This document shows, piece after piece, positions 3,330-5,930 of a DNA stretch of 64,000 nucleotides (position 1 is its first letter; each line of letters opens with the position of its first letter). The notes under the pieces were generated by a model. That model saw only the letters and a program-made list of their open reading frames with translations, had not been told where the DNA came from and did not search any database. The DNA comes from Methanobacteriota archaeon (GTDB lineage Archaea; Halobacteriota; Methanosarcinia; Methanosarcinales; Methanosarcinaceae). The stretch is taken from assembly GCA_016841625.1 (NCBI GenBank), contig JAENYU010000005.1, forward strand, positions 1-64,000, read 5' to 3'. A program made the position numbers and the translations under genes.

Positions 3330-3770
3330 TTAATTCCTGACAACCATTACCGGGATCTTTGAGTTCCGGACAACTTTCTCCGCAACGCTGCCGAGGAGGA
3401 ACCTGTCAATCCCGCTTTTTCCGTGTGTTCCCATCACTATAAGGTCCACGCTGTTGTTTTCTGCGAAATCGATTATCTCGTTGCTTGGATGTCCTTCTTC
3501 GAGAATTTCTTTGACTTCAACCCCCGCGGCTTCTCCGGCTTCCTTTACGTAGGAAACCGCTTTTTTCCCTTCTTTCTTCAGGATTTCGTACATTGCTTCC
3601 CACCCGGCATCCATGGGTATTGAGGAAAAAGAAGATGTGTCCACCACGTAGAGTGCATGGAGTGTAGCCCCGCTCATTTTTGCAATCTCAATCCCATAAG
3701 AGACCGCCCTGTCACTGTTCTCAGATCCATCGGTTGCAATCACAATGTTCCTGTAAAACTCGCTTGTCAT
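3330..3770 (-). CDS. Universal stress protein (UspA family)
   Basis: A 146-residue single Usp domain. The ATP-binding signature G-2x-G-9x-G-S/T is intact near the C terminus (MGTHGKSGIDRFLLGS), so it is of the nucleotide-binding type. N-terminal IVIATDGSENSDRA is the usual first strand and loop. Its ATG overlaps the stop of the upstream amidohydrolase (ATGA, 3767-3770), so the two are probably translationally coupled. The physiological role of archaeal Usp proteins is mostly unknown. Confidence 0.9.
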   Translation of the reverse strand: MTSEFYRNIVIATDGSENSDRAVSYGIEIAKMSGATLHALYVVDTSSFSSIPMDAGWEAMYEILKKEGKKAVSYVKEAGEAAGVEVKEILEEGHPSNEIIDFAENNSVDLIVMGTHGKSGIDRFLLGSVAEKVVRNSKIPVMVVRN

Positions 3771-4897
3771 GTTATGTTCTCCATCTGCTTTGAATGAAGC
3801 ACGGATAGTATATCGTCGGGTCTGGCCCTCCTGACGATTCCGTTTATCGGGTCTTTTGTCCCTGTAAGATTATTTGAATTTCCGTTAAGGATCATCAAGT
3901 TAGCTTTATGCCCCTTTTCTATCGAACCCGTGGAATCAAGCCCCATTACAAAAGAACCATTAAGTGTACAAATTTTAAATACTTGTCTGTCATCAATCGA
4001 AAATACTTTGGACATAAATTCCATTTCGGCAAACATATTTACAGAATTTAACATTACATTATCAGTGCCGGCAGCTACCCGAATACCCGCTTCGAGCATT
4101 TCGGCAATAGGTGCCATCCCAACTCCTGTTACAAAGTTCGATCTTGGACAGACAACTGCCGGAATTCCGGCGTCTGCTACCTGGTCCAGGTCCTTTTTTT
4201 CTGCTTTTGTAAGGTGAATGAGCAAATCGGGGTTCAGTGAAAGGGCTTTTTCAATGTCGTCTCTCTTTTTTTCTCCTGCATGGATGGCAAAGAGTCTATT
4301 CCTTTCCCTGGTGCAGGCGACAATTTCTTCCAGGCGTTTGAAGTCCAGGTCGTTTGCTCCACTCATCCCTAGCCCGTCAGAGTGCAAAAGGATCCTTCTA
4401 ATCTCATTCATAACGGTTCCCATAGCTAATTCGGGTTCTTTTGGTCTTCCAAAAATAAGAGATTGGAGGTCAAGGCCTTCAAGAGCTTTATTCAGTGCGG
4501 CAACCCCCAGAAATCCTCCTTCTCTGAAATCCGCAAAAGCAAAGGTGCCCGTTTCGATCATATCAAGCAGAGACCTTCTGATGCTTTCTATGAGGGCCGG
4601 ATAGGATGTTTGTCGGAGTATCCGGTGTTTCAACCCCTCAGGGGGCTTTACAAGTGAATCGAGTTCTTTTTCAACCCTGAAACCGGAAACTTTCCCGAGA
4701 GATGGATCTTTGAACACGGAATCCCCCAGGTGGGTGTGGGCATTGACGAAACAGGGTGCTATAATGTTGGAAGAATTAGTGTTTTCTTCTCCGATTTCAG
4801 TAATTATCCCGTTTTTTACGCAGACGTAGCCTCTGATAGGCTCAAGTTCGGGACCTGAAATTATAGTTCCGGAGATGATCTTTTCAATGCCGTACAT
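3767..4897 (-). CDS. Amidohydrolase, chlorohydrolase/nucleoside deaminase type
   Basis: A metal-dependent TIM-barrel amidohydrolase of 376 residues. The metal and catalytic positions are visible: VNAHTH (HxH), FAIHAGE, LLIHLT and the late AGTDN aspartate. This pattern belongs to the ATZ/TRZ and S-adenosylhomocysteine/5'-deoxyadenosine deaminase group; the substrate cannot be told from sequence alone, but deamination of an adenosine or guanine derivative is likely. I prefer the ATG at 4897 (MYGIEKII...) over the upstream one at 4936, because the family starts there and AGAGGG lies upstream. It overlaps the Usp gene by four bases. Confidence 0.8.
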   Translation of the reverse strand: MYGIEKIISGTIISGPELEPIRGYVCVKNGIITEIGEENTNSSNIIAPCFVNAHTHLGDSVFKDPSLGKVSGFRVEKELDSLVKPPEGLKHRILRQTSYPALIESIRRSLLDMIETGTFAFADFREGGFLGVAALNKALEGLDLQSLIFGRPKEPELAMGTVMNEIRRILLHSDGLGMSGANDLDFKRLEEIVACTRERNRLFAIHAGEKKRDDIEKALSLNPDLLIHLTKAEKKDLDQVADAGIPAVVCPRSNFVTGVGMAPIAEMLEAGIRVAAGTDNVMLNSVNMFAEMEFMSKVFSIDDRQVFKICTLNGSFVMGLDSTGSIEKGHKANLMILNGNSNNLTGTKDPINGIVRRARPDDILSVLHSKQMENIT

Positions 4898-4954
4898 AGA
4901 AAAGCAACCCTCTTGGTATGCAACGCCTGAGTCCAATTATTGATGTCCAGATAT

Positions 4955-5160: not shown

Positions 5161-5169
5161 CTTTATATC
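5161..5169 (+). promoter_or_regulatory. TATA box of the H/ACA RNA gene
   Basis: CTTTATATC lies about 25 bases before the first stem of the predicted guide RNA, the usual archaeal distance from TATA box to transcription start (near 5190). Confidence 0.55.
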
Positions 5170-5189
5170 TAAATACATATCTATGATCC

Positions 5190-5365
5190 TCAGTCGCATT
5201 GTATAGGTCCTTGCACGAGGAAATGGAAATTCCTGCCTGTGAATGTACAGACAACCCCAATGCGATACACCTATAGTGTGAGAATGCCCGGCACGAGGGT
5301 AACCGAAAGTGACTGCGGATTGCCAGAGGATGAACTTTCGGAGTTAGTGCGCTCGGGCTACAACA
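5190..5365 (+). ncRNA. Probable double-hairpin box H/ACA guide RNA
   Basis: An RNA of about 175 nt between two divergent genes. Hairpin 1 is closed by TCGCATTG (5194-5201) with CAATGCGA (5258-5265), followed after one base by ACA (5267-5269). Hairpin 2 is closed by GCCCG-GCAC (5286-5294) with GTGC-GCT-CGGGC (5347-5358), again followed after one base by ACA (5360-5362). Hairpin 2 has an upper stem CCGAAAGT/ACTTTCGG (5303-5310, 5334-5341) capped by GA (5311-5312) opposite TGA (5331-5333), as in a kink-turn that binds L7Ae. The internal loop between the two stems is a pseudouridylation pocket. A T-rich run follows. Such RNAs direct Cbf5 to pseudouridylate rRNA; the target is not identified. It could be another structured RNA. 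Confidence 0.7.
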
Positions 5366-5432
5366 CTATTTTCTCCTTCTTCGTTTGTTCATAATTTGCA
5401 TTTTCAGTTTTGCAGCTCTTCAGTTTGCGATC

Positions 5433-5525
5433 TTAAGGTTCTCTGATGCCGTTGGTAAGCCCTCTTGTAACAGCTATTTAAGGTTCTCTGATGCCGTTGG
5501 TAAGCCCTCTTGTAACAGCTATTTA
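5433..5525. repeat. Perfect 45-bp tandem duplication
   Basis: A 45-base unit containing GATGCCGTTGGTAAGCCC is present twice without a mismatch (5433-5477 and 5478-5522, match running to 5525). It sits between the guide RNA and the DUF167 gene. The lack of divergence suggests a recent duplication. Confidence 0.95.
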
Positions 5526-5615: not shown

Positions 5616-5930
5616 ATGTCTTTTGAAGACGCAATAAAATCACTGGATTCCGGAGTAAGTGTGGATATAGAGGTCACACCCGGGTCAAAATCCGTGTCTG
5701 TTCCAAGTGGTTATAATGAATGGCGTAAGAGAATAGAAGTCAAACTTACTAAAAATGCCCAGAAAGGAAAGGCAAACGAGCAGTTGATCGAAAGCCTTGC
5801 GGAACTTTTTAGAATCAGTAGTTCCAGCATCATGATTAAAAGTGGGGCTACAAGCAGCAAGAAATCCGTTTTGATAAAAGGTGTTTCTTACGAGCAGGCT
5901 GTCTCTGTTTTTGGGGTCCGTTTGAAATAA
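5616..5930 (+). CDS. DUF167 / UPF0235 (YggU) family protein
   Basis: A 104-residue single-domain protein. The family core is visible: TPGSKSV near the N terminus, then VKLTKNAQKGKANEQLIESL and the later IKSGATSSKKSVLI. It has the usual length. No biochemical function is established; the family often sits beside other small housekeeping genes. The Toprim gene follows 72 bases downstream on the same strand and may share its transcript. Confidence 0.9.
   Translation: MSFEDAIKSLDSGVSVDIEVTPGSKSVSVPSGYNEWRKRIEVKLTKNAQKGKANEQLIESLAELFRISSSSIMIKSGATSSKKSVLIKGVSYEQAVSVFGVRLK

What the first reader, a model, noticed from the sequence alone, without database searches (positions are those of the whole stretch)
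5190..5365. Two-hairpin H/ACA guide RNA between amidohydrolase and DUF167 genes
Two independent stems (8 bp perfect; 9 bp with a bulge) are each followed after one base by ACA, and hairpin 2 has an inner 8-bp perfect stem topped by a GA/TGA kink-turn. Promoter TATA and a T-rich end frame the unit. Pocket arms in hairpin 2 are GAGGGTAA on the 5' side and GAGTTA on the 3' side, with about 14 bases to the ACA box, as in archaeal guides.
Basis: partly seen in the sequence, partly recalled or inferred. Interest (0 to 1): 0.6.

Follow-up and report, generated by a model that had tools for sequence, protein, structure and literature searches.

The report
Conserved two-hairpin archaeal pseudouridine guide RNA
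A methanogen genome carries a conserved small RNA gene, not in the standard RNA library, that very probably tells an enzyme which uridines at the heart of the ribosome to convert to pseudouridine.

Summary
Window 5193-5369 (+) is an intergenic RNA with two hairpins, each with a lower stem, a pocket, an inner stem with a GA/GA kink-turn and an ACA box. It is found in 35 of 40 relatives; models of the two hairpins hit 118 and 140 of 294 genomes of the phylum. Compensatory changes support both. Rfam has no match. Hairpin 2 matches helix 69 of 23S rRNA at U1915/U1917 (E. coli numbers); hairpin 1 matches U2586 at the peptidyl-transferase centre, and in most genomes also the A-loop at U2554/2555. 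The same pair of guides was described in Haloferax (HP1, HP2) and as Pf7 stems II and III (PMC2584109). So it is a member of a known kind. One feature was not seen in the papers read: in most Methanosarcinaceae a 7-11 bp covarying stem pairs the spacer with the bases directly after the second ACA. Not shown: transcription, protein binding, the pseudouridines. The hairpin 1 match to U2586 is weak by itself (88 of 1000 shuffles as good); it rests on conservation and the Haloferax precedent.

The parts
5162..5168 (+). TATA-like box TTTATAT, about 25-30 bases before hairpin 1
   Evidence: Sequence; TTTATAT seen by eye upstream in 18 of 29 loci
5193..5266 (+). Hairpin 1 (H1); lower stem 5193-5201/5258-5266; arms 5202-5209 (TATAGGTC) and 5251-5257 (ACAACCC); kink-turn GA 5217-5218 and TGTGA 5238-5242
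   Evidence: 11 of 17 pairs with changes on both sides in 28 sequences; model R2 hits 140 of 294 genomes
5267..5269 (+). ACA box of hairpin 1
   Evidence: ACA or ATA at this place in all 28 rows of A2
5273..5279 (+). 5' strand of the stem that encloses hairpin 2 and its ACA box (spacer)
   Evidence: 7 bp with 5363-5369; MFE; 5 of 7 pairs change on both sides
5286..5358 (+). Hairpin 2 (H2); lower stem 5286-5294 with 5347-5350 and 5354-5358; arms 5295-5302 (GAGGGTAA) and 5342-5346 (AGTTA); inner stem 5303-5310/5334-5341; kink-turn GA 5311-5312 and GATGA 5329-5333
   Evidence: 15 of 28 pairs (with the enclosing stem) change on both sides; model R1 hits 118 of 294 genomes
5360..5362 (+). ACA box of hairpin 2
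   Evidence: ACA in all 28 rows of A3
5363..5369 (+). 3' strand of the enclosing stem, directly after the ACA
5368..5392 (+). T-rich stretch after the stem, possible terminator
   Evidence: Sequence only

Best explanation
It is a free-standing box H/ACA guide RNA gene, the Methanosarcinales form of the guide known as HP1/HP2 in haloarchaea and as Pf7/Pab40 stems II and III in Pyrococcus. Shown here: the two-hairpin structure, its conservation and covariation, the kink-turns and ACA boxes, matching rRNA sites, and genes for Cbf5, L7Ae and Nop10 in the genome. Inferred: it is transcribed from its own TATA box; L7Ae binds each kink-turn and Cbf5-Nop10-Gar1 each ACA and lower stem; each pocket pairs with 23S rRNA on both sides of a target U, which Cbf5 isomerises. 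H2 pairs AGUUA with UAACU and GAGGGU with ACCCUC in helix 69, placing U1915 and U1917 (E. coli numbers; 1948 and 1950 in the relative's 23S) in the pocket in two registers. H1 pairs AACCC with GGGUU and GGUC with GACC, placing U2586 (2609) in the pocket; its arms can also pair with the A-loop around U2554/2555 (2577/2578).
For: Homologues in 35 of 40 relatives by blastn; phylum hits 118 of 294 (H2 model) and 140 of 294 (H1 model). Covariation score reached by 0 of 500 shuffles (wider set 52, 53). Of 54 contigs with an H1 core pattern 53 carry H1 by model and 52 carry H2; one H2 miss is cut by the stored end (L262), the other contig, a bacterium, has neither, a chance pattern match. Targets: H2's best site by strict pocket scan is LSU 1950, 6 of 1000 shuffled arms as good. 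Sites nearly invariant: helix 69 GUAACUAU(G/A)ACCCUC in 42 of 44 23S loci, the 2586 site in 41 of 44. H1 pairs with the 5' side of 2586 at 4 or more of 5 positions in 65 of 65 guides. Cbf5, L7Ae, Nop10 genes present. The same targets were proposed for Haloferax HP1/HP2 (PMC2584109 section 24).
Against: No transcript, pull-down or pseudouridine map was available. For H1 the 2586 match alone is not significant (88 of 1000 shuffles as good), and other sites score higher in one scan or the other (LSU 2578, SSU 221). H2 has a rival site SSU 1272 (best). Rfam models of known H/ACA families do not hit. H1's inner stem has mismatches, and GUC/GAC next to the pocket can pair with each other. 5 of 40 relatives and more than half of the phylum sample gave no hit.
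Confidence: 0.93

Rival explanations
1. A cis-acting leader (riboswitch-like) of the DUF167 gene that lies downstream, not a guide.
For: DUF167 lies downstream on the same strand in 22 of 29 loci, in many within 60 bases.
Against: 7 of 29 loci show no DUF167 within the stretch held (some are short); in the window about 240 bases lie between. ACA boxes and kink-turns in both hairpins and rRNA-matching pockets would be unexplained. Model hits span the phylum.
Confidence: 0.04
2. H/ACA guide, but with other main targets: H1 for the A-loop U2554/2555 and H2 for SSU U1272.
For: 12 bp for LSU 2578 and best score for SSU 1272 in the free scan; the A-loop match is 10 or more of 12 in 53 of 65 guides.
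Against: The A-loop register needs 16 bases to ACA, outside the 14-15 given for productive guides (PMC4652768). It is lost in the high-GC relatives (L169, L170, L184-187), whereas AACCC is largely kept. The SSU site varies (GCCCTCGTG, GTCCTCGTG, GCCCTCATG) while the arms do not follow.
Confidence: 0.15
3. A degenerate or non-guiding H/ACA-like RNA, for example an antisense regulator or a structural RNA.
For: Only indirect: guides acting on mRNA have been proposed in archaea (PMC4652768, abstract).
Against: Pocket arms are among the most conserved parts and match conserved rRNA.
Confidence: 0.03

Closest known systems
Haloferax volcanii H/ACA hairpins HP1 and HP2 (Hvo1, Hvo2) (PMC2584109 section 24; PMC4652768 section 14)
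   Same: Two guide hairpins for Psi2621 (E. coli 2586) and Psi1956/1958 (1915/1917); same order H1 then H2 in the presumed haloarchaeal loci found by our models
   Different: [quoted passage not shown] here 16 bases lie between the first ACA and the second lower stem. Haloarchaeal-like H1 lacks the A-loop complementarity. Haloferax itself was not fetched.
Pyrococcus Pf7 / Pab40 stems II and III, Archaeoglobus Afu4 (PMC2584109, PMC4652768)
   Same: Stem III guides the 1915 equivalent; kink-turn plus ACA architecture
   Different: Three hairpins there; no stem I equivalent seen upstream here. No sequence alignment to them was made.
Eukaryotic U19 / snR191 snoRNAs (named in PMC2584109)
   Same: One guide for both helix 69 pseudouridines
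   Different: No kink-turn in eukaryotic H/ACA RNAs (PMC7991803, passage); homology not tested

Membership tests
Archaeal box H/ACA guide RNA | Stem - internal loop - stem hairpin with conserved pairing | tested here: met
Archaeal box H/ACA guide RNA | ACA (ANA) box directly after the lower stem | tested here: met
   Both hairpins, all 28 aligned rows
Archaeal box H/ACA guide RNA | Kink-turn or kink-loop in the upper stem | tested here: met
   GA and TGA conserved in both hairpins; TGA invariant in A2 and A3. No 3D model made
Archaeal box H/ACA guide RNA | 14-16 bases from ACA to the first pair of the upper stem, lower stem 7-9 bp, GA stem 10 | tested here: inconclusive
   H1: 14 with a 5-base guide, 16 if C5209-G5250 closes the upper stem. 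H2: 18, or 15 without the 3-base bulge; 8 bp plus two GA pairs makes 10 (my count)
Archaeal box H/ACA guide RNA | Pocket complementary to rRNA on both sides of a UN | tested here: met
   H2 strong, H1 by conservation
Archaeal box H/ACA guide RNA | Cbf5, L7Ae, Nop10, Gar1 in the genome | tested here: inconclusive
   Cbf5 458 bits, L7Ae 176 bits, Nop10 78 bits, all over cut-off; Gar1 not searched
Archaeal box H/ACA guide RNA | Expressed, bound by L7Ae/Cbf5, directs pseudouridine | not testable with these tools
   No expression or modification data
Haloferax HP1/HP2 (Pf7 stems II/III) family | Same targets 2586 and 1915/1917 | tested here: met
   with PMC2584109; prediction only
Haloferax HP1/HP2 (Pf7 stems II/III) family | Common descent with the published sequences | not tested
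   Published sequences are in supplements that could not be read; models do hit high-GC phylum members

The most novel reading that the evidence does not exclude
In Methanosarcinaceae this is a structural variant of H/ACA RNA: the second ACA is not at a free 3' end but sits in an internal loop closed by a covarying 7-11 bp stem, which may mark the 3' end for processing from a DUF167 co-transcript or help hold the second particle. In methanogens hairpin 1 would also serve two sites, U2586 and the A-loop U2554/2555, so that one RNA covers four or more uridines around the active centre.
Probability: 0.35. Interest if true: 0.5.

Novelty: new member of a known kind. Interest (0 to 1): 0.36.

Why it matters
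It gives methanogens of the Methanosarcina group, and many other members of the phylum, a concrete candidate guide for the helix 69 and peptidyl-transferase pseudouridines, with covariance models where Rfam has none. The A-loop prediction and the stem around the ACA box are sharp, cheap tests of how far the published geometry rules for archaeal H/ACA guides hold.

Tried and rejected
Rfam at gathering score and at E up to 10 gave no hit in the region. The window's genome and two of its three genus mates gave no match to the 16S or 23S models, so targets were scanned in the 23S and 16S of the same-genus genome G003 (L034). A first alignment used minus-strand loci unturned and was redone. SSU 1272 as target of H2 was set aside because the site varies without change in the arms. 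SSU 221 for H1 was not followed. A third, upstream hairpin like Pf7 stem I was looked for only by eye and not seen. No protein structure was predicted.

Rows dropped: of 35 matching genomes, 5 (G012, G025, G028, G031, G038) had no locus returned and were not aligned; L023 (partial) and L011 (row looks the same as L010) were left out of A1-A3. The 40 distant loci were picked by me from model hits, so that 36 of 40 match R1 and 37 of 40 match R2 is no measure of frequency.

Papers: PMC2584109, section 24 read and passages; PMC4652768, outline with abstract, sections 10 and 14 and passages; PMC7991803, passages; all others search listings with abstract starts only. That no Methanosarcina H/ACA guide and no stem after the ACA turned up rests on the searches in an open-access library, supplements not read; the supplement of PMC2584109 lists homologous sequences and may include Methanosarcina.

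Full report
What is there. Between an amidohydrolase gene on the minus strand (3767-4936, PF01979) and a DUF167 gene on the plus strand (5616-5930, PF02594) lies a stretch without a listed ORF. At 5193-5369 (+) it can fold into two hairpins. Hairpin 1 has a lower stem of 8 perfect pairs plus a G-U pair and then ACA at 5267-5269. Hairpin 2 has a 9-pair lower stem with a 3-base bulge, a pocket, an 8-pair inner stem, a GA/GATGA kink-turn, and after one base ACA at 5360-5362. Hairpin 1 too has a kink-turn (GA 5217-5218 against TGTGA 5238-5242).

Is it more than chance? The minimum free energy is moderately low (z -2.3), which alone would not convince. Comparison does. A blastn search of 40 relatives (the window's own genome counted) found it in 35. 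On 28 aligned sequences hairpin 1 has 11 of 17 pairs with changes on both sides, and hairpin 2 with its enclosing stem 15 of 28; no shuffle of 500 reached the covariation score, and slid structures pair in 21-46% and 34-41% of cells instead of about 90%. The count of pair types for hairpin 2 is no better than shuffles (94 of 500). Covariance models of the two hairpins hit 118 and 140 of 294 genomes drawn from the phylum at E up to 0.01, nearly always once per genome. In 40 distant loci chosen from those hits, 36 match the hairpin 2 model and 37 the hairpin 1 model, 33 both, side by side; on these the covariation is stronger still, though those alignments were fitted to the model. A 23-letter pattern of hairpin 1 in named genomes gave 54 contigs: Methanosarcina, Methanolobus, Methanosalsum, ANME-2 and other Methanosarcinales or unassigned Euryarchaeota, and one bacterium which carries neither hairpin by model. 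Rfam has nothing for it.

What it targets. No 23S or 16S gene was matched in the window's own assembly, so I used those of a same-genus genome. E. coli numbers are my conversion by counting from conserved motifs, in line with the equivalences in PMC2584109. In a strict pocket scan hairpin 2's best site is LSU U1950 (E. coli 1917), with AGUUA:UAACU and GAGGGU:ACCCUC; 6 of 1000 shuffled arms did as well. U1948 (1915) is reached in the neighbouring register. Helix 69 reads GUAACUAU(G/A)ACCCUC in 42 of 44 23S loci examined; one has C to U where the guide's G can still pair, one was not found. A competing site, SSU U1272, scores best if lower-stem bases are allowed to pair, but it varies between genomes and the guide does not follow.

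Hairpin 1 is less clear. AACCC, exactly the five bases above a 9-pair lower stem, pairs with GGGUU before U2586, and GGUC with GACC after it. By score this is not remarkable (88 of 1000 shuffles; SSU 221 scores better and LSU 2578). But the AACCC match holds at 4 or more of 5 positions in 65 of 65 guides and GGUC fully in 55 of 65, the site is the same in 41 of 44 loci (two not found, one partial locus gave another match), and U2586 is the published target of the Haloferax counterpart. That register needs 16 bases to the ACA, beyond the 14-15 stated for productive guides in PMC4652768. I keep it as a second possible target.

The machinery. The genome has genes for Cbf5, L7Ae (eL8) and Nop10 over the curated cut-offs. 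Gar1 was not searched. A TTTATAT box lies upstream in 18 of 29 loci, the window's included, counted by eye.

The stem after the ACA. In the window 5273-5279 pairs with 5363-5369, directly after the second ACA. On A3 the stem is 87% paired and 5 of 7 pairs change on both sides (0 of 500 shuffles for the score, 38 of 500 for the number of pairs). On 52 contigs aligned by the model it is 99.6% paired, with the reservation that this alignment is fitted. Measured without the alignment of the spacer, 17 of 28 sequences have 7-11 contiguous pairs, against 3% with 6 or more for shuffled tails; the seven from other Methanosarcinales families have 2-4, and of the 37 sequences of the wider set only the window's own reaches 7. 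So it is a feature of Methanosarcinaceae, strong in most but short or interrupted in four (L007, L009, L012, L019). The papers I read describe the ACA as the 3' end of the motif (PMC4652768, passage). What the stem does is open; DUF167 follows on the same strand in 22 of 29 loci, often within 60 bases, so end-processing is a fair guess.

Comparison with the known. Grosjean and colleagues (PMC2584109, section 24) described HP1 and HP2 in Haloferax for Psi2621 (2586) and Psi1956/1958 (1915/1917), related to Pf7 stems II and III, and Toffano-Nioche and colleagues (PMC4652768, section 14) refolded them. This RNA has the same two guides with a short spacer. Common descent with the published sequences was not tested by alignment, because they are in supplements. 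Blaby et al. 2011, which I recall as the test of Cbf5 in Haloferax, was not held; PMC7991803 says, citing it, that Cbf5 can be deleted there.

Verdict. An ordinary but well supported member of a known kind, in a group where I found no report of it, with one structural addition not seen in print and one testable second target.

Noticed in passing
window 5433-5522: Two perfect tandem copies of a 45-base unit between the RNA and DUF167; function unknown.
   Followed up: no
L153-L192 against A3: In many other lineages the ACA of hairpin 1 nearly abuts hairpin 2 and the enclosing stem is missing; in high-GC loci L169, L170, L185-187 the two hairpins stand further apart.
   Followed up: partly
L055 and other 23S loci: Helix 69 has A instead of G after U1917 in nine of the 44 23S loci examined, and one of these (L055) also has GUAAUUAU; both fit unpaired or wobble positions of the guide duplex.
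   Followed up: partly
L002-L030 flanks: DUF167 (YggU family, unknown function) follows the guide RNA gene in 22 of 29 loci, a synteny that might hint at a role in RNA or ribosome biology.
   Followed up: no
   Followed up: no
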